DNA of 33,197 nt from positions 1 through 33,197 of the IMG/VR virus record IMGVR_UViG_3300044619_000646, one strand, 5' to 3'. Under the pieces are notes generated by a model. That model saw nothing but the letters and a program-made list of their open reading frames with translations. It did not search any database and was not told the DNA's origin. The position numbers were made by a program, and so were the translations under genes. Positions 3-15,232 of this stretch are shown piece by piece (positions within the stretch are counted from its first letter, which is position 1; every line of letters begins with the position of its first letter). This DNA is from a virus.

Positions 3-1058
3 ACCTCCTCGGCACCCCAGGCCGAGCCTTCTCAGGGCCAGCCCCAGTCACCTTGGGAAGCGTTCCGTCGCCTCCCCGATTTCCAGGGCCAGGATGACCG
101 GGCCATCGCCGCCCGGCTCTACAACGCCATGGAGAGGGAGAAGGCTGCGGCCCACAAACTGGCCCAATACCAGCAGATTCTGCCCTACGCCCAGGAATAC
201 CTGACCCATCGCCGTCCATTCCAAGAGTGGATGCAGAACCAGTCCCAGCAGACCCAGGCCAATCCGCAGGTCCAGCAGGCCGCCCGGCTCCAGGCCCAGC
301 AGCCCCAGCCAGCACAGCAGCCCCAGCAGTCGTGGTGGAACCCGCCCAAGGTTCGAGATGCCTACAAGCGGTACTTGACCAAGGACGAGACCGGCCGGGA
401 GGTGATCTCCGAGGACGCTCCCCTCGACGCCCGCCATGAACTCATGGAGTACCAGCAGTACCGGGCCGACTTCGCCCGGAAGTTTCTGGAAGACCCACAG
501 TCAGCCCTTGGCCCAATGGTGGAGAACCTTGCCAAGCAGCAGGCCGAGCAGATTGTCCAAGAACGCTTCCAGATGCAGGAAAACGAGAGTTTCGTGGCAA
601 ACATCGAGGAGCAAAATCGAGACTGGCTCTTTGATAAGCAAACAGGCAATGTCACACCAGAGGGGTTGCTCGTACATAAGTTCATCGAAGAGGCAAGAGA
701 GCGTGGCATCAAGGGGCCCCAAGCCCGTTGGGACTACGCAGTGGCAATGGCCGAAAGGCAAATGCTGGCTCAAGCCTTTGACGAGCAACAGTCCGCAGCG
801 ACGAACCAACTCCAGCAGTCAGCACGGCAGTTCATGGAGCAAGCGGCCCGGCCTCAACCGCCAGCCCAGCCTCCAGCACCGCCGCAGCCGCAACAGCCGG
901 ATTTGGCCAAGCAAAACATGGAGTACCTGAGGCGGGAGGCCGCCAGGAACCCCAGCCGTTCAGCGGGAACGGCAGTAAACGACACTCGGGCTAGTAAGCC
1001 CAAGATGACCTTTGAGCAGATGCTAAGAGAAGACGCCTCAACCCGAGGCCTAATCTGA
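3..1058 (+). CDS. Scaffold-like protein, 5' partial
   Basis: The reading frame is open from the left edge, so the true start lies outside; 351 residues are visible. The protein is hydrophilic, Gln/Glu/Arg-rich and predicted mostly helical. It has a Gln/Pro-rich low-complexity stretch (about residues 80-110 of the visible part) and another Pro/Gln stretch near residues 280-300. No enzymatic motif is visible. It lies 13 bases upstream of the major capsid gene, the position where tailed phages usually encode the scaffold or capsid-assembly protein, and its composition fits. The assignment therefore rests on position and composition, not on a family motif. A different internal head protein is possible. 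The last residues (basic and acidic patches before a C-terminal 'RGLI') could be the coat-binding end, which is inference. Confidence 0.6.
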   Translation, partial: TSSAPQAEPSQGQPQSPWEAFRRLPDFQGQDDRAIAARLYNAMEREKAAAHKLAQYQQILPYAQEYLTHRRPFQEWMQNQSQQTQANPQVQQAARLQAQQPQPAQQPQQSWWNPPKVRDAYKRYLTKDETGREVISEDAPLDARHELMEYQQYRADFARKFLEDPQSALGPMVENLAKQQAEQIVQERFQMQENESFVANIEEQNRDWLFDKQTGNVTPEGLLVHKFIEEARERGIKGPQARWDYAVAMAERQMLAQAFDEQQSAATNQLQQSARQFMEQAARPQPPAQPPAPPQPQQPDLAKQNMEYLRREAARNPSRSAGTAVNDTRASKPKMTFEQMLREDASTRGLI

Positions 1059-1071
1059 AAGGGAAGCAGAA

Positions 1072-2190
1072 ATGCCGAGTTCCACTGACTGGGCCCGTTC
1101 CATTGGCACGACCATTATCAACTACCTCAAAGAAGAGGAGTTGACCACTTTCCGAAAGTTCAAGGTATTCGCAGCCCTTGAAGGTTCGGGTAACGTCGTG
1201 ATGAACCAGGCTGGTAGGGGCCTTCAGTGGGAGGTGAGGTACAGGAATCAGCCGGTGACCGGGAACAATGGCGAGACGCCAAGAGTCTTCGCTCGCCAGA
1301 ACCTCTGGGTCAACGCTGAACTTCCTTATCGCGGCTATCAGGTCACCGATAGCATCTACAAGAAAGAGATGCTGGAGAATCGTGGTCAACAGGCCCTTAT
1401 CAATGTTGCTGGCAAGATGGCTAGCCGTCTTCAGGAGTCGATGGAGCAGCACCTCGCCAAGGAGGTCTGGATCGACGGCGGGAAGGCGGGGAACGAACTC
1501 CGCTTCCATGGCATCGAGTCCATGATGGCCATCGACGGGACCATCAACATCAACGATGGGACCAAGCGGGCTGCCAATGCCGAAGACCCGTTCGGCTGGC
1601 CTGCCGATGTCTACGCCAACGTCAACACGGGCCTCGGTGCTATCGCCGGGTCCCAGTTGGAGGGCGTTTGGCCCAACGGTGTCAGCGACCCCGAGTATGA
1701 CTTCTACAGCCCCATCGTGGTGAACTACACCTCGACGTACTTCAAGGGCGGGACCACCCCGACCTGGGCTGACAACTGTGTCGTGGCGACCCGAGAGGGT
1801 ATCCATCAGGCCAAGCGGAATGACACCCGCGAGAGCCAGATCGACATGGTCATCCTCGACCGGAAGATGTTCATCGAGTACCTGAACAAACTCGACTCCA
1901 AGGAGCGGGCCATTGTGACTCGTACCAATGGGCTCAAGTCCTATGGTTTCAATGATGTATTCGAGCAGGACGGCGTCGAAATTTCGACGGAATACGCTGT
2001 GCCCACGGGCTGCGGATACGGGCTCTCCATCCAGAACATGGAACTCCGTTGCATGGAGGGAAGCCTGATGACTGCTGAAGGACCTTTCTACAACGAGGAC
2101 CTCCAAAGTTATCGGTATGTCGTTTCCGTATTGGCCAACCTGAAGTTCCGTTCGCCAAGGAACTTCTTCAAGTTGCAGGCCATTGCCTGA
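1072..2190 (+). CDS. Major capsid protein
   Basis: A 372-residue protein that I read as the major coat protein forming the icosahedral shell. The N-terminal region is helical with an acidic/Lys stretch near residues 20-30. It is followed by a segment rich in aromatic/Gly turns ('GRGLQWEVRYRNQPV', about 49-63), a 'RGYQVTDS' strand near 90 and a long amphipathic helix near 100-130. This resembles HK97-fold coat proteins of podovirus-like phages, whose usual size is 300-400 residues. An AGGGA ribosome site lies 7 bases before the ATG, and the gene follows the scaffold-like gene directly, which is the standard order. No protease gene or obvious propeptide is seen. The identification combines overall pattern recognition with context; fold prediction would settle it. 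Confidence 0.8.
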   Translation: MPSSTDWARSIGTTIINYLKEEELTTFRKFKVFAALEGSGNVVMNQAGRGLQWEVRYRNQPVTGNNGETPRVFARQNLWVNAELPYRGYQVTDSIYKKEMLENRGQQALINVAGKMASRLQESMEQHLAKEVWIDGGKAGNELRFHGIESMMAIDGTININDGTKRAANAEDPFGWPADVYANVNTGLGAIAGSQLEGVWPNGVSDPEYDFYSPIVVNYTSTYFKGGTTPTWADNCVVATREGIHQAKRNDTRESQIDMVILDRKMFIEYLNKLDSKERAIVTRTNGLKSYGFNDVFEQDGVEISTEYAVPTGCGYGLSIQNMELRCMEGSLMTAEGPFYNEDLQSYRYVVSVLANLKFRSPRNFFKLQAIA

Positions 2191-2229: not shown

Positions 2230-2736
2230 ATGAGCGTTTTGACTAGCGATCCGCCGTTTGGCCGTGGCACCACCCTTGGGGTGAAGTCCGTCAGTGATGG
2301 CAACAGCGTCGTGGGCTCCGTCAAGGTGTTCACGGATGCCAACCCCCATGACGGCTCGGTGTACTCCAACCGGGAAGTCCGAGTGGTGGTCCTCCGTAAC
2401 CGCCACACCGACCCGCTCCTCCCGGGCCAGTTGGTGAAGTGCAACCTTGAGGAAGCCACCGGCCTTGCTGCCGCTGGTGACACCCTGGTTGCCGTGGTGG
2501 ACGAGTACCTGGCTGCCGCTGGCGTCAAGGTTGACGATGTCTTCTATGGCGTCGTGACCGGCCCGACCAAGGTGCTGGGCCTGACGGCTTCGGCTGAAGA
2601 CCCGGTCAACATCGGGGCCGGTGGTGACGCCGCTGCTGGTGCTGGCCTGGGTGTGGCCCTGGCAGAGACCGATCCCGACACGGGCATGACCCGGGTTCTG
2701 GTTGGTCTTGGCTACAACTCGGCCGCCAACGGCTGA
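2230..2736 (+). CDS. Probable capsid decoration protein
   Basis: A 168-residue protein that looks almost entirely beta-structured, rich in Val, Gly, Ala and Asp. The centre has a run of alternating hydrophobic residues ('REVRVVVLRN') and a 'LLPGQLVKCN' turn typical of small beta-barrel head proteins. The C-terminal part has Ala/Gly-rich repeats ('GAGGDAAAGAGLGVAL') and ends close to 'RVLVGLGYNSAANG'. There is no signal peptide or membrane segment. Its place immediately after the major capsid gene is where many phages encode a head-stabilising (cement) protein. The function is inferred from position and composition only. An AAGAAGG ribosome site lies about 10 bases before the ATG. Confidence 0.5.
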   Translation: MSVLTSDPPFGRGTTLGVKSVSDGNSVVGSVKVFTDANPHDGSVYSNREVRVVVLRNRHTDPLLPGQLVKCNLEEATGLAAAGDTLVAVVDEYLAAAGVKVDDVFYGVVTGPTKVLGLTASAEDPVNIGAGGDAAAGAGLGVALAETDPDTGMTRVLVGLGYNSAANG

Positions 2737-2747
2737 TAGGTGCCATC

Positions 2748-3047
2748 ATGCCCGAGTGGCTGACGGTTCAAAACGTGGTCTTGGCGGCAGCGGCCCTGAT
2801 TCTTGCAGGACCGTATGCCGCCAAGGCCGCCGCCGTTTTCATGGTGACCCCCACGGTCAACAAGGGGGACTTCCAGAAGCAGGTGGTGACCGAGTTGCTG
2901 ACCCTCAAGGACAAGTTGGAGAAGGAGGGCCATACGGTCGCCTCCAAACTCTGCAAGGACTTGGTCATCGCAATCGTCTACGGCGACATCGCCACACCCA
3001 CCAGCACACCGGCCGCACCCCAGGCGAGTTCCCTGTTCGGCAAGTAG
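2748..3047 (+). CDS. Small membrane protein, one N-terminal segment
   Basis: A 99-residue protein with a single long hydrophobic segment near residues 8-34 (Val/Leu/Ala-rich, interrupted by a Pro-Tyr pair). An amphipathic charged helix follows ('TLKDKLEKEGHTVASK', about 51-66), then a Thr/Pro/Ala-rich tail. No lipobox or clear signal cleavage site is seen, so it would stay in the membrane with a short soluble domain. It follows the decoration-like gene by 11 bases with only a weak AGG ribosome site, suggesting coupled translation. The gene after it encodes a secreted protein, so the two could act together at the host envelope. A holin-like role is possible but nothing specific supports it. 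I do not recognise the family. Confidence 0.65.
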   Translation: MPEWLTVQNVVLAAAALILAGPYAAKAAAVFMVTPTVNKGDFQKQVVTELLTLKDKLEKEGHTVASKLCKDLVIAIVYGDIATPTSTPAAPQASSLFGK

Positions 3048-3062: not shown

Positions 3063-3506
3063 ATGGGCAGAAGGACAATCCTTGCCGTTTCGCTCTTGGT
3101 CCTGGCCGTCTGCTGCCTGGGCAAGGCTGTCACGCCCAAGAAGCAAGTCTGTCAGCCAGAGGCCTGCAAGCCCAAGCCTCTGGGGTCCGAGTTTGAACTG
3201 GAGGTTGTCCGACTGACCAATGAGGAGCGAGTCTCCCGAGGCCTTCGCCCGTTGAAGGTAGAGGCCAAGATGATGTACGACGCTCGTAGTTGGAGTCATG
3301 TCCAAGCCAACAGCCGGATGCACCATTCCAGAATGGGCTACGGCGAGAACGTGGCCTACGGGCAAGACACCCCCAGGGAAGTGATGAACGCCTGGATGAA
3401 CTCCCGAGGCCACCGACAAAACATCCTGAACCCGTCTTACTCCAGTATCGGAGTTGGGGCCGTGAGCAGCGGCCGAGCAATCTTTTGGACCCAGGTCTTC
3501 CGCTAG
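3063..3506 (+). CDS. Secreted CAP-domain (SCP/PR1-like) protein
   Basis: A 147-residue protein with an N-terminal export signal (Arg-Arg at 3-4, hydrophobic core 6-19, adjacent cysteines 17-18 that only loosely resemble a lipobox). A compact CAP domain follows at about residues 43-147. Family landmarks visible are the N-terminal 'LTNEERVSRGLRPL' helix (51-64), His79, His87-His88, the 'GENVAYG' signature with Glu95, 'AWMNSRGHRQNIL' with His117, 'SIGVGA' and the terminal 'FWTQVF' strand. CAP domains are usually 120-150 residues; this one is short because the loop between the first His helix and GENV is trimmed. CAP proteins are secreted and functionally diverse, and no single reaction can be assigned. 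It lies in the head operon between a membrane-protein gene and another secreted-protein gene, an unusual place for such a domain. Confidence 0.85.
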   Translation: MGRRTILAVSLLVLAVCCLGKAVTPKKQVCQPEACKPKPLGSEFELEVVRLTNEERVSRGLRPLKVEAKMMYDARSWSHVQANSRMHHSRMGYGENVAYGQDTPREVMNAWMNSRGHRQNILNPSYSSIGVGAVSSGRAIFWTQVFR

Positions 3507-3523: not shown

Positions 3524-3877
3524 ATGAAGAAGTGTCTGATTCTGTCGGTGTCGTTTGCTCTGGGGTGCGTGGCCGCCGTTCCGGCCGCCCAGGCTGGCAA
3601 CTGCCACGGGGACAAGAAGAAGGTCGTTGTGGCCGCCCCCGTGGAGGTCGATGTGAAGGAAGAGGTGGTGGTCAAGGTTGAGGAGCCGGTCGTGGTGGCC
3701 GTCTCTGATCCGATCAGCCTCCGCTCGGCCTTCAAGGATGCCAACCGGGAGGCTCGGGCCACCAAGAAGGCTGCCGTGCTGGGCCATCGGGCTGCGAAGT
3801 TCAGCCGCAAGGCCGCAGACGCCGCCTCCCAGGAGGCCAAGCAGGAAGCGGTCATGCAGGCTTATGACGCCAACTGA
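3524..3877 (+). CDS. Small secreted Val/Lys/Glu-rich protein
   Basis: A 117-residue protein with a clear signal peptide: Lys2-Lys3, hydrophobic residues 5-22 and an AQA|G cleavage site near residue 24. The mature start has Cys27 and His28. The next part is a low-complexity tract of alternating Val with Lys, Glu or Asp (about 31-62), likely extended beta or disordered. The last third is a basic, Ala-rich helix (about 70-117). No known domain is recognised. A good ribosome site (AGAAAGG) precedes the ATG. It is the last gene before a strong terminator and directly follows the CAP-domain gene, so the two exported proteins are probably co-expressed. Its role is unknown. A periplasmic or surface-binding function is a guess from the signal peptide alone. 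Confidence 0.65.
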   Translation: MKKCLILSVSFALGCVAAVPAAQAGNCHGDKKKVVVAAPVEVDVKEEVVVKVEEPVVVAVSDPISLRSAFKDANREARATKKAAVLGHRAAKFSRKAADAASQEAKQEAVMQAYDAN

Positions 3878-3902
3878 TCCGGCAGAGGTGTCGGGGAGTT
3901 TG

Positions 3903-3938
3903 AAGGGGGGCGGTGGACTGGATGCCGCCGCCCCCCTT
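3903..3938 (+). terminator. GC-rich hairpin terminator
   Basis: Bases 3903-3916 pair with 3925-3938. They form a 14-bp stem with one G-U pair (core AAGGGGGGCGG / CCGCCCCCCTT) and an 8-base loop, followed by a short T-rich stretch (TTTACGTTTAT). It sits 25 bases after the stop of the small secreted-protein gene and before the packaging block, so it likely ends head-block transcription, at least partly. The T tract is broken by A, C and G, which may make it leaky. Confidence 0.75.
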
Positions 3939-4034
3939 TACGTTTATGAAAAACGACCTGCTTCACTCCTTGTCTTGGATTCTTGTACTTATCCTTTTGG
4001 CAATGCTGTCTCTAGTCCAGCCGGGGATGTTCCA
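3939..4034 (+). promoter_or_regulatory. AT-richer leader, possible promoter region
   Basis: This 96-base non-coding leader between the terminator and the next gene is clearly richer in A/T than the surrounding genes. It holds runs such as CTTGTCTTGG, ATTCTTGTACTTATCC and TTTTGG. No -35/-10 pair is convincing: TTGTCT and TTCACT elements are present, but the matching -10 boxes are poor. Because a strong terminator lies immediately upstream, a new promoter for the terminase block is expected here. The assignment is contextual. Confidence 0.3.
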
Positions 4035-4310
4035 ATGAGTAACCGAATCCGGGCCATGCGGTCTCGCCCCCGGGAGATGACCCCCGAGGAAAAGCAGGCC
4101 ATCCAGTTCCTGATGACCGGCCAGAACACGAACCTGACCGAGGACATCACCGGCAGCATGGAGGACTATCTACAGGGCCCATCCATGGCCAGCGTCCTAC
4201 TCCGACAAGCCAAGGGTGATTACCTGCGGGACCTCCAGCAGAAGAGCCAGGAGCAGGGGACAAACATGAGCCCCATGATCGCCTCGATCCTCCAGTTAGA
4301 TCGGCAGTGA
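4035..4310 (+). CDS. Small protein upstream of terminase
   Basis: A 91-residue soluble protein, acidic in the middle, predicted helical. It has a 'MTPEEKQAIQFLMTG' helix (15-29) and a second helix near 52-70 ('ASVLLRQAKGDYLRDLQQKS'). There is no signal peptide or membrane segment. The frame is open well upstream, but the ATG at 4035 is the first sensible start after the leader and terminator; the ribosome site before it (GGGGA) is poor and close. Its stop overlaps the start of the next gene by one base (TGATG), implying translational coupling. It could be a packaging accessory or a DNA-binding co-factor of the terminase. I do not recognise the family, so no function is claimed. Confidence 0.6.
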   Translation: MSNRIRAMRSRPREMTPEEKQAIQFLMTGQNTNLTEDITGSMEDYLQGPSMASVLLRQAKGDYLRDLQQKSQEQGTNMSPMIASILQLDRQ

Positions 4311-4996
4311 TGGAAGCCTCCAAGCCAGCAACCACTCGGCAATGCGAGGAGTGCAAGAACGTACTCCCGCTGACTCTCAAGTTCTTCCCCCGGGTCCCCG
4401 GCACCCAGGACGCCCTCCAGTTCGTCTGCCGGAAGTGCAAGCGGGCCAAGTTGCAGCAGAAGAAACTGCAACGGATCGAGTCCGGGGCCATCGACGCCTA
4501 CATCAGCCACCTGACCAAGGGCGGGTCCAATATCCCGCACACGGCTGAACTGCTGGAATCCATCATGGTGTACTTCGGCGGGTCCAATGGATTCGCCAGT
4601 CTCCTGATGAAGCAATACTTCGAGTCCAAGCCTGGAAGCCGAATCAGGAACTCCATTCTAGAGATGGTGGTTCGCCTTGCCTCCAAGAACACCGAACAGG
4701 GCGGGGCCAAGAAGCCTCTGGCCCTGCACACGGAGGAGGAACTGGAAGGCGAGATCAACAAGCGGCTGGAGCAGGCGGTCCTAACCTACGGTGGAAAGAG
4801 GTACATCAATGCCCCGCAAGAAGAAGCATCCGCCCTCACCTTCGGCCCCGATTCCGCTGGCCCAGTCCATCTCGTCATTCCAGATGGACGAGTTGCGGAA
4901 CTTGCAGGCCGAATTGAACGAGAGGCGGATCGAAGCCTTGAGGCTATACAAGCCAACTCCCAAGCAATGGGAGTTCCATCAGTGCCTGGCCAGTGA
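4310..4996 (+). CDS. Putative terminase small subunit with zinc ribbon
   Basis: A 228-residue protein. It starts with a four-cysteine zinc-ribbon-like element (Cys12-x2-Cys15 ... Cys40-x2-Cys43) followed by a Lys/Arg-rich helix (44-56), suggesting nucleic-acid binding. A helical middle (about 78-125) has a conserved-looking 'GGSNGFASLLMKQYF' segment. An acidic helix follows ('TEEELEGEINKRLEQ', 141-155). It lies directly upstream of the large terminase, where the DNA-recognition subunit is normally encoded. Start: ATG 4310 overlaps the preceding TGA; a GTG at 4307 is also in frame. From about residue 167 the gene overlaps the large terminase out of frame, and codon choice there turns unlike the rest of the gene. 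The function is inferred from context, size and the DNA-binding-like head; no enzymatic motif is expected in this subunit. Confidence 0.65.
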   Translation: MEASKPATTRQCEECKNVLPLTLKFFPRVPGTQDALQFVCRKCKRAKLQQKKLQRIESGAIDAYISHLTKGGSNIPHTAELLESIMVYFGGSNGFASLLMKQYFESKPGSRIRNSILEMVVRLASKNTEQGGAKKPLALHTEEELEGEINKRLEQAVLTYGGKRYINAPQEEASALTFGPDSAGPVHLVIPDGRVAELAGRIEREADRSLEAIQANSQAMGVPSVPGQ

Positions 4997-6500
4997 AACC
5001 CTGGTTATCGGCGGTAATCGGTCGGGAAAATCCCTCTGTACCTTCATTGAGGACGCCTGGGCTGCCACTGGGACACACCCGGTCGAGGGCAAGTACCGGA
5101 AAGAGGGCGGCAACCTCGTCATTGTCGGGGCCAACTGGAAGCACATTGGTCTGGTCGTGGTGCCCTACCTGTTCCGTGCCGGGGCCTTCAAGATCATCCG
5201 CGACAAGGCCACCGGCCAGTTCCGAGCGTTCGACCCGGTGGCCGACGCCGACCGGTTGGGGGAAGCCAAGCCTGCCCCGCCGCTTATCCCTCCCCGTCTG
5301 GTAAAGAGTTTTTCATGGGTACTCAAGTCAGCCGGTTACCTCAATTCTTGTGAACTACACAATGGGTGGACGATCTATTGCTTTAGTTCAGAGGGAGACC
5401 CGCCCCAGGGATTTCAGGCAGATAGAGTTCATATAGACGAGGACCTCAATAACGAAGCCTGGGTCCCCGAGATGCAGGCTCGACTTGCAGACCGGAAGGG
5501 TAACTTCAACTGGAGTGCCATGCCGCACTCGAAGAATGAAGCCCTGATTGGCCTGAACGAGCGGTGCGAAAAGGCCGAGGAGAAGGGTGACACCAGTGAC
5601 ATCCGCCGGTTCGTGTTGAGGTTTTTGGACAACCCTCACATCGACACGGATGAGAAGCGGAAGATGATCGAGCGGTGGTCGGCCGTGGGGGATGACGTTC
5701 TCCGGCAGCGATCCGAAGGCGAGTTCATCACCGACTCGATTCTGGTTTACCCCACTTGGAACCCGTCAATTCATGGGTTCGATGCTAGCACTTTCCCGAC
5801 AGCATCCGTCCCCGATGACTGGTGCCGGTATGCCGTGATCGACCCGGGCCATGCCGTGACGGCCATCCTGTTCGCTGCCGTCCCGCCCGACGAGAAGTTC
5901 CTGCTCCTCTATGACGAACTCTATATCCGTAACTGCAATGCCATCATCTTTGGCCAGGAGTTCCAGCGAAAGGTGGCGGGCAAGCAGTTCCATGCGTTTC
6001 TCATAGACGCCCACGGTGCCCGCCTGACCGACATTGGTTCAGGCCGCAGCCCCCAGGACCAGTACACCGAGCAACTGGTGGCCCTGGGAATCCGGTCCCG
6101 GGTGACGGGGGCTAGTTTCATCCCCGGCAGCGACGATGTCCTGGCTGGCCTCCAGGCAGTCCGAAACCTTCTCCATATACGTCCAGATGGAACCCCATCC
6201 ATAAGGTTTGTCCGTGGGGCTCTTCCTAATCTCGAAAGGGAAATGAAGAGGTACAAGAAGAAGGTGACCTATGTGGCTGGTACTGCCGTGGTCACCGACG
6301 AGCCCAACAAGAAGGGCGAGTTCCATCTGGTGGACTGCCTCCGCTACCTCTGTGCCTACGATCCGGCCTACCACAAGCCCGAGCAGCAGATCGAGCAGCC
6401 CTGGTGGGTCCAGTGGAAAGAGAAGCGGGACAAGGCCAGGGGTGGCAATGGCGTGGTGTACCTGACGCCCAATTCGTACACCCAGGCCTGGATTGCCTGA
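4809..6500 (+). CDS. terL: Terminase large subunit (packaging ATPase-nuclease)
   Basis: A 563-residue motor protein that drives DNA into the procapsid through the portal and cuts the concatemer. Visible from the N-terminus are an adenine-binding 'KPTPKQWEFHQ' element (about 48-58), Walker A 'GGNRSGKS' (68-75), and Walker B 'RVHIDED' with Asp210-Glu211. The RNase H-like nuclease acids follow: Asp345 ('VIDPGH'), Asp400 ('LIDAHG') and Asp509 ('LVDCLRYL'). The length is normal for the family. I chose ATG 4809 because AGAGG lies 7 bases upstream. A GTG at 4791 and an ATG at 4884 are alternatives, the latter without a ribosome site. All of these overlap the upstream gene, and the adenine-binding element lies inside the overlap, so a start beyond it is not possible. 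A short segment around Walker B has A/T-ending codons unlike the rest. Confidence 0.95.
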   Translation: MPRKKKHPPSPSAPIPLAQSISSFQMDELRNLQAELNERRIEALRLYKPTPKQWEFHQCLASETLVIGGNRSGKSLCTFIEDAWAATGTHPVEGKYRKEGGNLVIVGANWKHIGLVVVPYLFRAGAFKIIRDKATGQFRAFDPVADADRLGEAKPAPPLIPPRLVKSFSWVLKSAGYLNSCELHNGWTIYCFSSEGDPPQGFQADRVHIDEDLNNEAWVPEMQARLADRKGNFNWSAMPHSKNEALIGLNERCEKAEEKGDTSDIRRFVLRFLDNPHIDTDEKRKMIERWSAVGDDVLRQRSEGEFITDSILVYPTWNPSIHGFDASTFPTASVPDDWCRYAVIDPGHAVTAILFAAVPPDEKFLLLYDELYIRNCNAIIFGQEFQRKVAGKQFHAFLIDAHGARLTDIGSGRSPQDQYTEQLVALGIRSRVTGASFIPGSDDVLAGLQAVRNLLHIRPDGTPSIRFVRGALPNLEREMKRYKKKVTYVAGTAVVTDEPNKKGEFHLVDCLRYLCAYDPAYHKPEQQIEQPWWVQWKEKRDKARGGNGVVYLTPNSYTQAWIA

Positions 6501-6931: not shown

Positions 6932-7288
6932 ATGAAGCGGATTCCCCTCATTGTGATCCTCCTTTGTCTCCTGGCCACCAAGGTGGAGGCCAAGCCCCGG
7001 AAGCAGACCGGGGTGGCTTCCAAGGTGGTTTCCTGCACGGACGGCCAGTGCCGGATTCTCCCCCAGTGGAATACCTCCACGGCCCAAGGGGTGGCTGAAA
7101 TCATGGCCTCCCGTGGGGTCATGGCTCACCTCGGCGGCAACTCGGGCTACGAGGGTGTCGGCATGGGCTCGACCCCCGAGCAGGCCCTGAACAACTGCTG
7201 CTATTCCCGCTCTGGGATGCAGGTGACCGACCAGGGTGTGGCCCGTGGCCGAGACGGCCGCTGGTACGCCTGTAAGAGGTATCACTGA
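6932..7288 (+). CDS. Secreted Cys-rich protein, degenerate CAP-like
   Basis: A 118-residue protein with a signal peptide (Lys2-Arg3, hydrophobic 4-15, likely VEA|K cleavage after residue 20). The mature part has five cysteines (35, 40, 89, 90, 114), consistent with disulfides. Its core reads like a shrunken CAP domain: an Ala/Met helix 'AEIMASRG' (54-61), His66, then 'GYEGVGMGSTPEQAL' (72-86) where CAP proteins have 'GYGENVAYG...P.EV', and a final 'RWYACKRY' strand in place of the CAP 'W-T-Q-V' strand. The CAP His-Arg motif is replaced by the Cys89-Cys90 region. GGAGG lies 6 bases before the ATG. Its stop shares a base with the portal start (TGATG), so it is expressed with the portal. The homology is my reading by eye, not a search result. 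Confidence 0.7.
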   Translation: MKRIPLIVILLCLLATKVEAKPRKQTGVASKVVSCTDGQCRILPQWNTSTAQGVAEIMASRGVMAHLGGNSGYEGVGMGSTPEQALNNCCYSRSGMQVTDQGVARGRDGRWYACKRYH

Positions 7289-9965: not shown

Positions 9966-11018
9966 ATGTCGCTCGTCCCACCCAGCCATCGTGAAGGCAA
10001 GGTCCGCAATGTCGCGGACTCCTACGAGAAAATCTCCCAGCGGATCAAGGTCCGTCAGGACTCGGCTGACAACTGGACGAAGAACGACCCCGTCCTAGAA
10101 GCCGGTGAGTTTGGGTACGAACTCGGGTATCCCAACGGGAAACTCAAGATCGGCACCGGCAGCACCCGCTGGACGGAACTGCCTTATCTCATGGCCAGGG
10201 GTCCCGCTGGGGCTCCGGGCCCTGCTGGCCCTCCTGGCAAGGGCATCCAGATCAAGGGCGTGGCTGACGTTTGGCCGCCCGCCGTGGCTCCCGAGCCCGG
10301 TGACCTCTGGATCATGGGCGACCCGCTGCCCCCAGGTGCCCCGGCCGATGCCGAGATCGGTGACGGCTACGTCTGGACCGGAACCAAGTGGACCCCGACA
10401 GGCCCCATTCGTGGGCCGGAGGGTGTGCCAGGTCAGTCCGTGCTGGTCTTCACCTCGCCCACGGCCCCCACGGCTACCAATACGGGTGACCTGTGGATCG
10501 AGCCCGGCCTGCCTGGTGAAGCCACCCTCTCCATCTGGGACGGCACAGACTGGCTCACCATCTCCAGTGGCGAGACCCATGGGCATATCGTCTCCACCGT
10601 TGAGCCTGTAGGGACCTTCAAGGAAGGCGACCTCTGGATTGACCCCACGGGTACGCCTCCCGAGATCATCTACAGCAACACCAACCCCCCGGTGTCCATC
10701 GACACTCCTGCCGCCGAGTCGGGCGGCGAGCCGCTGGGGGTCGTGGGCGGGGTGTACATCGAGCCTGACGTACTGGGCGGGGTTCCCGTCGTGGTGGCGG
10801 GCAAGCGGTACTTGATGCCCCTGATCGCCGCCCCGGCCGGACTGGACACCCGCACTCCCCTGTTCTCGTTTGCTGACGAGCCGGTACGCCAGCAGTTGGA
10901 TGGCGGCTGGCTTGGCTTCGATGACACGGGCATGAACTACTACCAGCCCGAGGTTGTCGGCGGTGTTCCCGTGGTGATTGCCGGTAAGCGTTACCTCCTT
11001 CCGATCATGGCAGAGTGA
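9966..11018 (+). CDS. Tail fibre: Mtd-N-like base plus collagen segment
   Basis: A 350-residue modular fibre protein. Residues about 26-75 match the pattern of the major-tropism-determinant N-terminal domain ('DSADNWTKNDPVLEAGEFGY' ... 'KIGTGSTRWTELPY'), which anchors fibres to the tail. A short collagen-like stretch follows (79-93), then a 60-residue WPP...GDP module (94-156) repeated in two later genes. Two 'GDLWI' strand motifs come next (174-178 and 221-225). The C-terminus carries two copies of a 19-residue element ('GGVPVVVAGKRYL' at 271 and 332), the second forming the protein end. An A-rich leader with AGGGCGAGG precedes the ATG. It is the first of seven genes transcribed in series that supply the fibre apparatus. 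Receptor-binding is inferred for the family, not shown. Confidence 0.8.
   Translation: MSLVPPSHREGKVRNVADSYEKISQRIKVRQDSADNWTKNDPVLEAGEFGYELGYPNGKLKIGTGSTRWTELPYLMARGPAGAPGPAGPPGKGIQIKGVADVWPPAVAPEPGDLWIMGDPLPPGAPADAEIGDGYVWTGTKWTPTGPIRGPEGVPGQSVLVFTSPTAPTATNTGDLWIEPGLPGEATLSIWDGTDWLTISSGETHGHIVSTVEPVGTFKEGDLWIDPTGTPPEIIYSNTNPPVSIDTPAAESGGEPLGVVGGVYIEPDVLGGVPVVVAGKRYLMPLIAAPAGLDTRTPLFSFADEPVRQQLDGGWLGFDDTGMNYYQPEVVGGVPVVIAGKRYLLPIMAE
10245..10433 (+). repeat. WPP/GDP protein module, copy 1
   Basis: Encodes about 63 residues with the frame 'G-V-A-x-x-WPP ... GDLWIMGDP-x-P-x-GAP ... GDG-x-VWTG-x-x-W ... GPIRGP'. Two further copies lie in the fibre genes at 13912-14100 and about 15683-15860. 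The three are clearly paralogous at protein level and are always flanked by collagen-like Gly-X-Y sequence. Confidence 0.8.
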
Positions 11019-11027
11019 GACCCATCC

Positions 11028-11975
11028 ATGCCCGCTCCTGACCGCCCTGGTGACCGCCAGACTATTGTCAAGGTTCTCGATGTCCCCAAGGGCATTGTCG
11101 GCTACTACACCGACCTTGAGATCGACGCTCTGCTTGCTGGCTTGCAGGGTGGGGGTGGTCTTCAGACTGTTGACCTGTCGGCCTATGCCACCACTGCTTA
11201 TGTGGACGGCCAGATCGCCACCGTCTATTCCAAGGCCGAAGTGGATGCTGCCATCAAGGCTGCGGCAGAGCAGGCTGCCATCGACCTCGATGCCGTGCAG
11301 TCCCAGTTGGTGTTTGCCATCGAGGAGACCGGCAAGCAGACGCAGGCCAAGATCGACCTCAAGGCCGACAAGGCAGCCACCTACACCAAGACGGAAGTAG
11401 ACGAGGCCATTGCCAACGCTGCCACCGGGGGCACGGTAGACCTTAACGGCTATGCCAAGACTGAAGACCTGCCTGCGGTCTATGAGCAGGACACCCAGCC
11501 TGCCGCTGGCAAGGACGGCGATCTGTGGCTCTCGACCCCTGTGGCAAAGGCGGCAGAGATTTCCGCTCTCATTGCCGATGCCGACACCAAAGACCTCGAC
11601 GCCCATGTAACCAGACTTGTCCGCTCCCTGATGGCGGGCGGCAAGACTGTCCCGGCAGACCTTCCGTGGACTGCCTGCACAAAGGTCCTTGGGTCGGGCT
11701 TGATCGAAGCCCGCGTCCTGAACGGCATGATCCAACTGCGTGGCGAGTTGGTCTACACCATGACGAGCGTCGGATCGTTCGCCACAGTCCAGCGGCTCCC
11801 TGCGAACTTTCCGAAACCCCCGGCGGATCAGATTGTTGTCGTGTTCGGCATGGAGACTGGCGTGACGTATCGGCGTGTGTTCGCCAAGTTTTCATCTGAC
11901 GGCTCAATCCAGATCGTTGGTGACGGCAAGGTCACCAACACCACATTTACGGGGGCACAGGCTTACGCCTACTAA
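11028..11975 (+). CDS. Tail fibre protein with paralogous tip domain
   Basis: A 315-residue fibre-type protein. The N-terminal part has a Gly-rich hinge near 42-47 and fibre-style repeats built on Tyr-x-K-x-E-V-D ('YSKAEVDA' and 'YTKTEVDEAI'), separated by an Ala-rich helix likely to trimerise as a coiled coil (about 66-125). A 'GDLWLSTP' strand (164-171) precedes a linker. The last 100 residues are a beta-rich tip ('ARVLNGMIQLRGEL', 'LPANFPKPP', final 'TFTGAQAYAY'). It has a counterpart at the C-terminus of the next gene, so the two probably fill equivalent positions on the virion. The preceding stop is 9 bases upstream and the ribosome site is weak, so coupling is likely. Confidence 0.75.
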   Translation: MPAPDRPGDRQTIVKVLDVPKGIVGYYTDLEIDALLAGLQGGGGLQTVDLSAYATTAYVDGQIATVYSKAEVDAAIKAAAEQAAIDLDAVQSQLVFAIEETGKQTQAKIDLKADKAATYTKTEVDEAIANAATGGTVDLNGYAKTEDLPAVYEQDTQPAAGKDGDLWLSTPVAKAAEISALIADADTKDLDAHVTRLVRSLMAGGKTVPADLPWTACTKVLGSGLIEARVLNGMIQLRGELVYTMTSVGSFATVQRLPANFPKPPADQIVVVFGMETGVTYRRVFAKFSSDGSIQIVGDGKVTNTTFTGAQAYAY

Positions 11976-11978
11976 ACC

Positions 11979-13592
11979 ATGAAGACTCTCCACGTTCACA
12001 GCAACGGTCAGTGGGTTGAGGTTGGTGGCTCTGGGGCTGCCGACCTGTCTCAGTACGCCACCATTGAGTACGTTGACGGCAAGGTCACCGCTGCGTCTGG
12101 GGTCATCGAGCATGACGCCGAACTGCCGCAGGTATCGCCGGGCTCGACCCCGCTCCAGATTCTTCAGGCGTGGTCTGGCTACGAGTCGGGAGTCCATGTC
12201 TTCAAGGGCGGCTCCGGTTCGCCCCGAAACATGGTGCTGCTCTCTAAGGCGTCGGTCACCGGCACGACCAACACGCCAAACGGGGAGAAGCCGACCGCTT
12301 CGGAATCCCTGAACGCCACCGTGTTCCTCAACGGCACGGGCTCGACCTACATCCGGATCACAACGACCGCCATCGACGGGGTGCAGGCCACTGCCAGGTC
12401 GGAGATTCTGGCGGCAATGGGCAGCCAGTGGGCCAAGATGGAGAGCCCGAAGGGTGATGTTCCCTTTGGGGCTCCGCAGGTGGCCGATCTGTTTGGTGGT
12501 GCAGTTGCTCCAGACCTGACCGGCCTCGCCTCGCAGGCTGACCTGACCCTCCTGCAAACCCAGATGCAGGCCATCTTCGACTCGATCTATACCCGAGCCG
12601 AATCGGATGACCGCTACGCCAAGAAGCAGGACAACACCCAAGACCTGCTCTCCAAGACGCTGGTGACGCAGGCTATTGGGTTTGGTGACGCCGCCCTGCC
12701 TCCGGTTGCCATTACCTACACCGACACAGGCGAAGGCTACGGTGACCGGCTGGTCTTCACCAAGGGTCTGGTCAATGACTATCTCGTCCTGAAGACCGAC
12801 CTCGACCCGTTCAACGCCCTGCTGCCCCGAATGGAAGCCCTTGAGGGCAAGGCAGCCCCGGTCATTGATTTGGCCCCATACGTCACGCTCGAAACCGCCG
12901 ACACCCGCTACGGCCGGAAGGACGCCCTCGACCTTCTCCGCAATCAAGTCCAGACGATCTTCGACTCGATCTACACGCGGGCTGAAGCGGACTTCCGCTA
13001 CCCCCTCAAGGCTGATGTCTACACGCAGAAGCAGACCGATGACCGCTTCATGCGAATCGACCAAGCGTTCAGCAAGGCTGACTTCGACAACCAGATGGCG
13101 TTGATGCTGTACTCCCGCAAGCAGGTCGATGACAAACTGACCGCGATCAGTCCGCTTGGCTCCCCGACGATCAATGACCCTGCTCTTGCCGAGTTCAAGA
13201 AGTCCGTCCTCGATGAGGTGAAGTTGATGCTCGTCGGTGGCACGAAGATGCCGCCGCCCGACATCGACTGGACGTGGATGGTTCGTATGGATGGGGCGAG
13301 GGAGTCTGTCTCCACCGAGATTCAAGCGCGGATGATCGGTGGCTTCATCGAACTCAAGGGGACTCTGTCGTTTGGTGCGGGCATCGGCGAGTGGGTGCCG
13401 CTGCGACTGCCGCCTCAGTTCCCGCTTGCAGAACTGGAATCGAAGTACCCCCTTGCCATGCGGCTTGTTGGCACGGCTGTCACCTACGGATTCTGCACGA
13501 TTCACCAGAATAATCGTGACATCAAAGTTAGTCCCGGCGCACGATCAAGCGAGGCGACATTCTCTGGCATCCGCTGGAAGGCGGCCTACTGA
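11979..13592 (+). CDS. Long tail fibre protein with repeated shaft
   Basis: A 537-residue fibre-type protein starting 3 bases after the previous stop. The N-terminal beta-rich region holds 'DLSQYATIEYVDGKV' (about 23-37), shared with the upstream gene ('DLSAYATTAYVDGQI'). The shaft contains a duplicated unit around 'IFDSIYTRAE' (about 199-208 and 327-336), each followed by a Arg-Tyr and 'K' heptad-like segment. A further 'YSRKQVDDKL' repeat comes later. The C-terminal tip (about 428-537; 'ARMIGGFIELKGTL', 'LPPQFPLAE', ending 'TFSGIRWKAAY') parallels that of the upstream gene. The pattern suggests a trimeric fibre of the repeated-shaft, globular-tip kind. No enzymatic domain is visible. Confidence 0.75.
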   Translation: MKTLHVHSNGQWVEVGGSGAADLSQYATIEYVDGKVTAASGVIEHDAELPQVSPGSTPLQILQAWSGYESGVHVFKGGSGSPRNMVLLSKASVTGTTNTPNGEKPTASESLNATVFLNGTGSTYIRITTTAIDGVQATARSEILAAMGSQWAKMESPKGDVPFGAPQVADLFGGAVAPDLTGLASQADLTLLQTQMQAIFDSIYTRAESDDRYAKKQDNTQDLLSKTLVTQAIGFGDAALPPVAITYTDTGEGYGDRLVFTKGLVNDYLVLKTDLDPFNALLPRMEALEGKAAPVIDLAPYVTLETADTRYGRKDALDLLRNQVQTIFDSIYTRAEADFRYPLKADVYTQKQTDDRFMRIDQAFSKADFDNQMALMLYSRKQVDDKLTAISPLGSPTINDPALAEFKKSVLDEVKLMLVGGTKMPPPDIDWTWMVRMDGARESVSTEIQARMIGGFIELKGTLSFGAGIGEWVPLRLPPQFPLAELESKYPLAMRLVGTAVTYGFCTIHQNNRDIKVSPGARSSEATFSGIRWKAAY

Positions 13593-13594
13593 CC

Positions 13595-13801
13595 ATGCCA
13601 ACCCTCAAGTATTGGGACAAGACCCGATGGGTAGACATCACCACCACCACCACCAGTGGCGGCGGCGGTGGAACTGTCGGCCCTCAAGGCCCACCCGGCC
13701 CCGCTGGGGCTGATGGACAGGACGGCGAATCCATTGTGGTTGTCGAGCAGGCATCGCAGCCTGCCCAGCCCAAGCCCGGAACTATTTGGTTTCAACCCTA
13801 G
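13595..13801 (+). CDS. Mini collagen-like fibre protein
   Basis: A 68-residue protein starting two bases after the previous stop. It is made of three parts: a 'YWDKTRW' N-terminal motif (6-12), a Thr5-Ser-Gly5 linker (17-27) and a collagen-like tract (about 30-45). It ends with 'SIVVVEQASQP' and 'PGTIWFQP'. Its two ends match those of the next gene, whose extra modules are missing here. Gly-X-Y tracts form triple helices in phage fibres. The role may be a spacer or a connecting collar, which is inference. The DNA for the Thr tract contains a short CAC/CCA microsatellite, and the Gly tract a GGC one. Confidence 0.7.
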   Translation: MPTLKYWDKTRWVDITTTTTSGGGGGTVGPQGPPGPAGADGQDGESIVVVEQASQPAQPKPGTIWFQP

Positions 13802-13815
13802 AGAAGGAGATAGCG

Positions 13816-14448
13816 ATGGCGAAGTCGGCAAACATCTGGACGGGATCGGAGTGGGTTTCCCTGATTGGCCCCGAGGGCCCTAAGGGCGATCCCGGCAAGG
13901 ACGGTTCGGGCGTCACCATTCAGGGCACGGCCACGACTTGGCCCCCTTCGGCTACTCCCGGTGCCGGTGATATGTACCTGCTGGGTGACCCGGTTCCGGC
14001 TGGTGCCCCGGTCGGCTCCAGCCCCGGCGACGGCGTGGTGTGGACGGGCTCTTCCTGGGTGAACGTCGGTGCCATTCGTGGCCCGCAGGGTGCCCCCGGT
14101 GCGGACGGTGCTGACGGTGCCCCCGGTATCGACGGCCAGAACGGTGCTGATGGTTCTGCGGCCAGTGTGGCTGTCGGAACTGTGACGGCCCTGCCTGCCG
14201 GTTCGACTCCCATCGTCACCAACAGCGGCACGGCCCTTGCGGCGGTGCTGAACTTCTCTATCCCTGCCGGTGCTGCCGGTTCTGATGGAGCGGACGGGGC
14301 CGATGGTGCCAAGGGCGACAAGGGAGACAAGGGCGATCAAGGAACCGCTGGAGCCGATGGCGTTGATGGAAACTCCATCGAGGTCTTCGTTCAGGCCAGT
14401 GAGCCGACCCCGGCTCGCCCCGGTGCCCTCTGGATCGACAACACCTGA
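13816..14448 (+). CDS. Collagen-like tail fibre protein
   Basis: A 210-residue protein. The start is set by AGAAGGAGA before ATG 13816; the frame is open further upstream, but those codons overlap the previous gene. Order of parts: 'IWTGSEWVSL' (7-16), short collagen tract (18-30), the WPP/GDP module (33-95), a second Gly-Ala-Asp-rich collagen tract (96-114), and an 'IGSVT'-type module ('VAVGTVTALPAGS' to 'LNFSIP', 117-150). A third collagen tract contains two 'KGDKGDKGDQG'-like units, followed by the 'SIEVFVQASEP'/'PGALWI' end. It is a fibre or spacer protein, probably trimeric. Its ends are shared with the 68-residue gene upstream and its beginning with the gene downstream, which points to expansion by module insertion. 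Confidence 0.8.
   Translation: MAKSANIWTGSEWVSLIGPEGPKGDPGKDGSGVTIQGTATTWPPSATPGAGDMYLLGDPVPAGAPVGSSPGDGVVWTGSSWVNVGAIRGPQGAPGADGADGAPGIDGQNGADGSAASVAVGTVTALPAGSTPIVTNSGTALAAVLNFSIPAGAAGSDGADGADGAKGDKGDKGDQGTAGADGVDGNSIEVFVQASEPTPARPGALWIDNT
13912..14100 (+). repeat. WPP/GDP protein module, copy 2
   Basis: Second of three copies. It encodes 63 residues with 'TATTWPPS', 'GDMYLLGDPVPAGAP', 'GDGVVWTGSSW' and 'GAIRGPQGAPG', and keeps all the anchor residues of copy 1 with many different residues between them. Confidence 0.8.
14164..14265 (+). repeat. IGSVT-NFVIP protein module, copy 1
   Basis: Encodes a 34-residue unit ('SVAVGTVTALPAGS' ... 'AVLNFSIP') that immediately precedes a collagen tract. 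Three related units lie in the large fibre gene downstream (15509-15601, 15950-16051, 16067-16159). Such units adjoin collagen tracts in many phage fibres, where they probably seed the triple helix. Confidence 0.7.
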
Positions 14449-14460
14449 TCGGAGTCAGAG

Positions 14461-15018
14461 ATGGCGAAGTCCACCAAGATTTGGGACGGCACGGCTTGGC
14501 ACGACCTGCAAGGCCCTCCGGGGCCAACGGTTGTGTCTGCGGATGCTGGCAACCTCCTGACCCTTGGCAGCGATGGCCTGATTCTGCTGCGCGGCGACAC
14601 GCAATTTAGCGGAATGTGGACGCCGTTTTGTCCAGAGTTGGGTACTTATGAGTCTGCCGAGGGCTATTGGTTTCGTGCGGGGCGTCTAGTCACGCTGTTC
14701 GTTCTTCTTAATATAGATCAAGGAAGGACACCGGGGGATGTAATGTCGGGGACAGACTTTAGTGTCGCGGGCCTGCCATTCGGCGTGGCCGAGTTCTTCG
14801 ACTCTTCCACCAGCGTAGCCAACGCATTGTTCTTCGCTCCCGTCTGTGGTTGCGCTCGCATCGACGGCGGAAAACTAGTTTTTGGCCTACCTGTGGGCGG
14901 GGCTGCTATAGATTTTGCTACCCAAGGAATCACCATTAATCTTGACAAGGCAACTGAAGATGCCTACCCGCTGACAGTGAACATCTCCTACCTCACCGAT
15001 GATGCGAGGATCGGATGA
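14461..15018 (+). CDS. Tail fibre protein with distinct tip domain
   Basis: A 185-residue protein. Residues 1-22 ('KIWDGTAWHDL', then 'GPPGP') repeat the beginning of the upstream gene, including an identical MAKS start. The remaining 160 residues are unlike the neighbours: a beta-rich domain with 'YWFRAGRLVTLFVLLNID' (about 69-86) in a form typical of fibre tips ('Y-x-x-x-G-x-x-V'), Cys-Gly-Cys near 129-131, and a closing 'VNISYLTDD'. Codons here (nucleotides about 14600-14960) include ATA, AGG, TTT and other A/T-ending choices rare in the rest of the window, which suggests that the tip was acquired separately. GGAG lies 8 bases or so before the ATG. Receptor contact is inferred from position. 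Confidence 0.75.
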   Translation: MAKSTKIWDGTAWHDLQGPPGPTVVSADAGNLLTLGSDGLILLRGDTQFSGMWTPFCPELGTYESAEGYWFRAGRLVTLFVLLNIDQGRTPGDVMSGTDFSVAGLPFGVAEFFDSSTSVANALFFAPVCGCARIDGGKLVFGLPVGGAAIDFATQGITINLDKATEDAYPLTVNISYLTDDARIG

Positions 15019-15230
15019 AAATCACCCTTCAGAATAACAAGTCCATCGGTGTGATCGAGGATCGCAACGGGCGGCTGTGGGCCTGCAACTATCACCCAGC
15101 CAAGGCGCTGCCAGATGATGCGCCGCAGGCAGTCAAGGACATGGCTGCGGCCCACTGGACGCCCGAGGTGATTCAGGCGGCGAAGGCCCGGCTCGTACGG
15201 GCCGTCGAGCCTCGTGTCGTGGGCAAGTAG
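15015..15230 (+). CDS. Small protein coupled to tail fibre gene
   Basis: A 71-residue protein overlapping the fibre gene stop by four bases (ATGA), so probably made in step with it. The first half is beta-like ('ITLQNNKSIGVIEDRNGRLWAC'). The second half has two short helices ('APQAVKDMAAAHW' and 'PEVIQAAKARLV'). There is no signal peptide. Small genes directly behind a fibre-tip gene often encode assembly chaperones or capping proteins, so that role is possible, but there is no motif to prove it. It ends two bases before the next fibre gene. Confidence 0.6.
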   Translation: MKITLQNNKSIGVIEDRNGRLWACNYHPAKALPDDAPQAVKDMAAAHWTPEVIQAAKARLVRAVEPRVVGK

Positions 15231-15232
15231 CA

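What the first reader, a model, noticed from the sequence alone, without database searches (positions are those of the whole stretch)
3063..3506. A CAP-domain secreted protein inside a phage head operon
The CAP signatures (GENVAYG, GHRQNIL, FWTQVF, His79/His88/Glu95/His117) are clear, with an export signal. The gene sits between capsid and packaging genes and upstream of the head-block terminator. CAP domains are well known in bacteria and eukaryotes as secreted proteins. In a phage structural operon, the inferred role would be host-surface modification, superinfection control or a lysis aid.
Basis: partly seen in the sequence, partly recalled or inferred. Interest (0 to 1): 0.62.

Follow-up and report, generated by a model that had tools for sequence, protein, structure and literature searches.

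The report
Phage CAP protein in capsid operon
A group of uncultured viruses, probably infecting planctomycete bacteria, carries a small exported protein of the CAP family (related to plant defence and venom proteins) inside its capsid operon, in genomes where close relatives carry proteases instead; its job is unproven, but an attack on the host's outer layers is the likeliest.

Summary
Window 3063-3506 encodes a 147-aa CAP-domain protein (PF00188, E=3e-16). Its AlphaFold model is confident and matches solved CAP structures (Z 17.8 to B. anthracis SCP, 16.5 to GAPR-1). It lies between major capsid protein and terminase genes, one gene before a strong conserved hairpin. The named ligands need correcting: H88, E95 and H117 are invariant; H79 is not part of the classical tetrad, and E106 (fourth position) varies.

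It is not a one-off. Over 20 IMG/VR records of one uncultured lineage carry it, always in the head operon, in one of two places. It is a compact CAP subtype that I otherwise found only in Planctomycetia chromosomes; phage copies form one clade beside those. Near-full genomes with CAP (5/5) lack the subtilase and papain-like protease that all near-full CAP-less relatives (10/10) carry. In the window's slot, CAP and the papain-like gene replace each other between close relatives. No peptidoglycan hydrolase was recognised in two genomes scanned.

Best reading: a host-derived, exported envelope effector expressed late with the capsid genes, most likely for lysis (inferred, about 0.4). Superinfection control remains possible. 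Phage CAP proteins are known (Bacillus phages Stills, Slash; role unknown), so this is a new variant of a known kind.

The parts
129..1058 (+). 'pre': gene upstream of the capsid gene, scaffold-like position; group-B relatives carry CAP directly upstream of it
   Evidence: homologues in the same order in the MCP-relative loci; no Pfam match
1072..2190 (+). major capsid protein (MCP)
   Evidence: phrog_9953 major head protein E=4.7e-9; 80 relatives kept in IMG/VR
2230..2736 (+). g168, conserved small gene after MCP (decoration-like position)
   Evidence: present in nearly all MCP-relative loci; function inferred from position only
2748..3047 (+). g99, one predicted transmembrane helix and a short helical tail; always with slot-type CAP
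   Evidence: HMM of g99 hits only CAP-slot loci; sequence shows the N-terminal hydrophobic segment
3063..3506 (+). CAP-domain protein: N-terminal hydrophobic export segment (2-19), linker with C-x4-C, compact CAP domain 41-147 (H88, E95, E106, H117)
3524..3877 (+). g117, small exported protein: signal peptide, CHG motif, basic Ala/Arg/Lys-rich helix
   Evidence: g117 HMM hits only CAP-slot loci; CHG-type analogues occur in CAP-less L042, L044 and L043
3900..3941 (+). GC-rich hairpin, probable terminator of the capsid transcription unit
   Evidence: z=-4.7; in 13/13 CAP loci directly after g117; directly after g168 in papain-slot and outer-clade loci
4035..4310 (+). g91, small conserved gene before g229
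4310..4996 (+). g229, conserved gene overlapping terminase
4809..6500 (+). terminase large subunit (TerL)
   Evidence: Terminase_6N E=6e-4, just below the curated cut-off; 25% identity to the terminase of Microbacterium phage Shocker
6932..7288 (+). g118, exported cysteine-rich protein; relatives in Planctomycetia genomes and in the variable slot of L042 and L047
7288..9402 (+). portal protein
   Evidence: phrog_156 portal E=8e-9

Best explanation
The gene encodes an exported, compact CAP-domain protein that an ancestor of this phage lineage probably acquired from a Planctomycetia host. SHOWN by computation: the CAP fold; conserved metal-site residues; an N-terminal export-type segment; purifying selection; among the viruses sampled, restriction of the compact form to this lineage; placement only in the head operon (between g99 and g117, or just upstream of 'pre'); alternation with a papain-like protease gene in the same slot; and perfect anti-association with subtilase plus papain-like protease genes in near-full genomes. 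INFERRED: it is made late with the capsid genes, crosses the inner membrane by Sec, and acts in the periplasm or cell envelope of a planctomycete host, with g99 (membrane) and g117 (exported) as partners. There it does the job that the proteases do in relatives, most likely weakening the host envelope for lysis and progeny release. The chemistry (metal-dependent hydrolysis, or lipid or peptide binding) is unknown.
For: CAP identity and fold. Conserved H88/E95/H117. Export segment; group B has classical cleavable signal peptides by eye. Slot alternation: 16 loci with CAP, 16 with papain-like, none with both, interleaved on the capsid-protein tree. Near-full records: CAP+ G001, G009, G013, G842, G843 have 0/5 subtilase and 0/5 papain-like; CAP- G023, G025, G027, G029-G032, G037, G042, G043 have 10/10 of both. 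A HExxH zincin-like protein is in all five near-full CAP+ records. No peptidoglycan-hydrolase family among the families listed for 60 proteins of G013 (CAP+; tables show 25 of 27 Pfam and 25 of 48 PHROG families) or 67 of G023 (CAP-; all 18 Pfam families shown). Papain-like: Q, GDC, H and NSWG conserved and Foldseek top hits xylellain and cathepsins. Same transcription unit as MCP by hairpin position. Host: MCP relatives in Pirellulaceae and Planctomycetia MAGs; P0001 matches 42/397 genomes of that class at E<=1e-12, the best being compact CAPs; phage CAPs one clade (99/95) beside them (99/97).
Against: No CAP protein is known to me to lyse bacteria, and the review read here calls the biochemical activity of PR1, a founding CAP protein, an open question (PMC10189770). 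The anti-association is largely clade-structured (few independent events). Planctomycetes do possess peptidoglycan (PMC4432640, title and abstract), so a peptidoglycan hydrolase too diverged to recognise may exist. The subtilase and some papain-like proteins have no obvious signal peptide, so shared function with CAP is indirect. Host assignment rests on three MAG contigs, one of them binned as Ignavibacteriales, plus the CAP tree.
Confidence: 0.4

Rival explanations
1. Superinfection control or host-surface modification: the exported CAP protein sits in the envelope of the infected cell and blocks adsorption or DNA entry of related phages, or masks receptors.
For: Host-derived, exported, swapped between close relatives like a moron. 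Structural match to the CAP domain of PrgA (Z 10.4), a conjugative-plasmid surface protein that I recall as a surface-exclusion factor.
Against: It lies upstream of the probable terminator of the capsid transcription unit, which suggests late high expression, whereas exclusion genes are usually early or independently expressed. Alternates with proteases. PrgA is a much larger, differently anchored protein.
Confidence: 0.25
2. Virion-associated protein acting at entry: CAP is carried in or on the particle and acts on the host envelope during infection.
For: Head-operon placement in two alternative positions and nowhere else seen.
Against: The N-terminal export segment would send it out of the cytoplasm where heads assemble.
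Confidence: 0.12
3. Protease antagonist: CAP binds and inhibits papain-like or subtilisin-like proteases of competing phages or of the host envelope.
For: CAP never co-occurs with the papain-like gene. The nematode CAP protein GrVAP1 targets the papain-like protease Rcr3 (PMC10189770).
Against: Anti-association equally fits functional replacement; no interface evidence.
Confidence: 0.1
4. Passenger: a captured host gene without a role.
For: Patchy presence across relatives.
Against: dN/dS 0.12-0.27, one old clade with about 50% divergence, conserved partners and placements.
Confidence: 0.04

Closest known systems
CAP superfamily (PF00188), bacterial YkwD/SCP-like proteins, e.g. B. anthracis SCP (PDB 4ifa)
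   Same: Fold (Z 17.8, 1.2 A over 103 residues), H-GEN-GHR core motifs
   Different: The phage domain lacks about 17 residues between the first ligand His and GEN that YkwD-type CAPs have; joined to a short export segment only
Compact CAP proteins of Planctomycetia chromosomes
   Same: Same shortened loop, 35-49% identity, sister clade
   Different: Host proteins end YWCQQF (Cys) where phage copies mostly have YWTQ-F; the phage copies sit in a phage head operon
YkwD-like LysM-CAP proteins of Bacillus phages Slash, Stahl, Staley, Stills (phrog_16914)
   Same: Phage-encoded secreted CAP domain; match to phrog_16914 E=3e-21
   Different: They are annotated as secreted LysM/SCP-PR1 or sporulation proteins; Slash carries it beside a Rha-like regulator, not in the head operon; role stated as unknown (PMC4541274)
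GAPR-1, Pry1, Borrelia BB0689
   Same: Fold (Z 14-17); the compact H-to-GEN spacing resembles GAPR-1 (from memory)
   Different: About 20-28% identity; eukaryotic or Borrelia surface contexts; sterol or lipid binding not tested here
Phage lysis cassettes with membrane-anchored (SAR) endolysins
   Same: Small membrane gene, exported effector and exported basic protein in a late operon near terminase
   Different: The effector is a CAP domain, not a recognised peptidoglycan hydrolase; holin, SAR and spanin functions untested

Membership tests
CAP superfamily (PF00188) | Profile match over the domain | tested here: met
   60.7 bits against cut-off 21.1, profile 2-117/117
CAP superfamily (PF00188) | Alpha-beta-alpha CAP sandwich | tested here: met
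   pLDDT ~97 over 41-147; Z 17.8 to 4ifa, 16.5 to 1smb
CAP superfamily (PF00188) | His/Glu tetrad lining the cavity | tested here: met
   H88, E95, H117 invariant; E106 present in the window protein but S/A/D in some relatives
CAP superfamily (PF00188) | Secreted or exported | tested here: inconclusive
   Hydrophobic N-terminal helix predicted; cleavage and export not shown
YkwD-type long-loop bacterial CAP | Extra ~17-residue segment between ligand His and GEN | tested here: not met
   Absent in the copies from this lineage, present in L012, L013, L015 and in the long-loop CAPs of Planctomycetota and Bacteroidota
Planctomycetia compact CAP subfamily | Short His-to-GEN spacing and clade membership | tested here: met
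   Sister clade to 14 host sequences, 99/95 and 99/97; of other phyla only that of the Ignavibacteriales MAG was sampled
phrog_16914 LysM-CAP phage proteins | N-terminal LysM domain | tested here: not met
   No LysM in the window protein; L015, an unrelated phage-type CAP, has it
Phage lysis cassette (holin-endolysin-spanin) | Recognised peptidoglycan-degrading enzyme | tested here: not met
   CAP is not such a family; none among the families listed (weakest rows of G013 not shown)
Phage lysis cassette (holin-endolysin-spanin) | Membrane permeabilisation and lysis activity | not testable with these tools
   needs expression assays

The most novel reading that the evidence does not exclude
A phage lineage of planctomycetes breaches its host's envelope with interchangeable effectors that are not peptidoglycan hydrolases: a CAP-domain protein (with a zincin-like protease) in some members, papain-like and subtilisin-like proteases in others. 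The CAP protein would be the first of its fold, to my knowledge, with a role in phage lysis.
Probability: 0.27. Interest if true: 0.82.

Novelty: new variant of a known kind. Interest (0 to 1): 0.52.

Why it matters
The role of phage CAP proteins is stated as unknown in the literature found here (PMC4541274), and the biochemical activity of the founding CAP protein PR1 is called an open question (PMC10189770). A natural series in which CAP and defined protease folds replace each other in one operon of closely related phages gives a direct genetic handle on what a CAP domain can do. It also points at how phages of planctomycetes, bacteria with an unusual envelope, may get out of their hosts: no recognisable endolysin was found in the two genomes scanned.

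Tried and rejected
Prohead-protease role for the slot: rejected because CAP carries an export segment and is not a known protease. Strict g99-CAP-g117 triad: true for the HMMs, but CHG-type exported proteins that resemble g117 occur without CAP, so g99-CAP is the better-defined pair. Uncleaved membrane anchor for all copies: dropped after group-B copies showed classical cleavable signal peptides; for the window copy cleavage is ambiguous. Consensus terminator scan did not list the hairpin; folding found it. Papain-like AlphaFold model is weak (pLDDT 57), so the family assignment rests on conserved residues and consistent Foldseek hits. In the first CAP tree two outgroup rows were probably mis-framed by my script; the tree was rebuilt without them. 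MCP has no match among INPHARED phages. A profile of the CAP alignment found no match in the three MAGs whose contigs carry the MCP relatives. Searches were argument errors; one search was a format error of the report.

Full report
1. The observation. Window 3063-3506 (+) is a 147-codon ORF. It matches PF00188 with 60.7 bits, E=3.2e-16, over profile positions 2-117 of 117, and phrog_16914, a phage family annotated 'sporulation protein', with E=3e-21. AlphaFold with 16 sequences (the window plus viral homologues) gives pLDDT about 97 over most of residues 41-147, with a separate N-terminal helix 2-19. VIA-align puts B. anthracis SCP first (4ifa, Z 17.8, 1.2 A over 103 residues), then GAPR-1 (16.5), Borrelia BB0689 (16.1) and Pry1 (15.1), and below Z 9 there is a sharp drop to unrelated folds.

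2. Corrections. In 16 homologues H88, E95 and H117 are invariant and H79 is not. By motif, E106 corresponds to the second Glu of the classical tetrad; it is present here but varies in relatives. The protein lacks about 17 residues between H88 and GEN that YkwD-type CAPs have. The window copy has a hydrophobic N-terminal segment; whether it is cleaved is unclear.

3. Surroundings. Gene order is pre, MCP, g168, g99, CAP, g117, hairpin, g91, g229, TerL, g114, g118, portal. The hairpin at 3900-3941 folds far better than shuffles (z -4.7), and a strong hairpin follows g117 in all 13 CAP loci checked. In the papain-slot loci L027, L030, L033, L040 and the outer-clade loci L052, L060 a hairpin lies about 25 bases after g168 instead. 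So slot-type CAP sits inside what looks like the capsid transcription unit, while the papain-like gene sits after its end. Co-transcription itself is inferred.

4. The lineage. The window is an IMG/VR record. At least 144 stretches encode MCP relatives, of which the best 80 were kept; none is in INPHARED. MCP relatives in GTDB contigs come from a Pirellulaceae MAG, a Planctomycetia MAG and an Ignavibacteriales MAG. A degenerate-DNA scan of viral contigs for the GENVA-GQ motif returned 53 stretches. Of the 51 new loci, 21 carried compact CAPs and all 21 had head-gene homologues of this lineage; 25 carried long-loop CAPs and none had such homologues; 5 had no CAP. Compact CAP is thus tied to this lineage among the viruses sampled. 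Its copies lie in two places only: between g99 and g117 (group A, the window) or just upstream of pre (group B, nine loci). Group-B copies have classical signal peptides by eye.

5. Origin. Compact CAPs occur in Planctomycetia chromosomes: the window protein matches 42 of 397 sampled genomes at E<=1e-12, best 92.9 bits, and the 15 best loci read are compact. A sample of the phylum of the Ignavibacteriales MAG gave at best 47 bits, and the loci read there are long-loop forms. In a tree of 39 sequences the phage copies form one clade (99/95) beside the host compact CAPs (99/97). One acquisition from such a host is the simplest reading. Direction is inferred, and other phyla were not sampled.

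6. What replaces it. In relatives without CAP the same slot often holds a 350-aa protein with Q, GDC, H and NSWG conserved, the papain pattern; its weak model still matches xylellain and cathepsins. Of 32 loci with CAP or papain-like in the slot none has both, and on the capsid tree papain-like L042/L044/L047 group with CAP loci L007/L009/L041. In near-full records (55 kb or more), five with CAP have no subtilase and no papain-like gene, and ten without CAP have both. These records are related, so the contrast counts few independent events. An HExxH zincin-like protein occurs in all five CAP+ records and in four of the ten CAP- ones.

7. Function. Among the families listed for 60 proteins of G013 (CAP+; 25 of 27 Pfam and 25 of 48 PHROG families shown) and 67 of G023 (CAP-; all 18 Pfam families shown) there is no peptidoglycan hydrolase. 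Small membrane and exported genes next to CAP (g99, g117) in a late operon near terminase recall lysis cassettes of podoviruses (my knowledge). The best-supported reading is an exported envelope effector that does the work that proteases do in relatives, most likely at lysis. Export itself and each step after it are inferred. Superinfection control, a virion role and protease inhibition remain open. GrVAP1, a nematode CAP protein, targets the papain-like protease Rcr3 (PMC10189770).

8. Known or new. Bacillus phages carry secreted LysM-CAP proteins whose role is stated as unknown (PMC4541274), and predicted structures of other phage and giant-virus SCP proteins exist. New here, as far as these searches show, are the compact planctomycete-type CAP fixed in a phage head operon, its two placements, and its exchange with proteases. 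I rate it a new variant of a known kind.

Noticed in passing
L171:4236-5174 (G023), L178:10403-11206 (G029) and 11 other records: CAP-less relatives carry a subtilase (PF00082, E down to 1e-57); in the two genomes read it lies next to a papain-like protease and small membrane genes, away from the head slot.
   Followed up: partly
L004:5165-5482 and L011:2319-2780: HNH-type ORFs (by eye) inserted between CAP and g117 in two relatives; in L004 the CAP C-terminus also differs from the otherwise identical window copy, as if co-converted.
   Followed up: no
window 6932-7288: g118: exported cysteine-rich protein (AHLGG-GYEGVGMGSTPEQALNNCC) with relatives in 13 of 198 Planctomycetia genomes and in the variable slot of L042 and L047; no Pfam family.
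   Followed up: partly
L043:11725-12006: Sister of CAP-carrying L048 whose slot holds only a short exported CHG-motif protein before the hairpin: a near-empty site.
   Followed up: partly
window 9966-17488: Several consecutive tail-type genes with collagen-like Gly-X-Y repeats.
   Followed up: no
L118:3111-4061 (G013) and L171:8008-8784 (G023): Serine recombinase (resolvase, PF00239) in near-full relatives, hinting at a temperate or inverting lifestyle.
   Followed up: no
L009:4318-5028, L041:11765-12517, L241:9056-9814: HExxH zincin-like family, several with an N-terminal hydrophobic segment, with no Pfam match above cut-off; beside CAP in some loci and elsewhere in others.
   Followed up: partly
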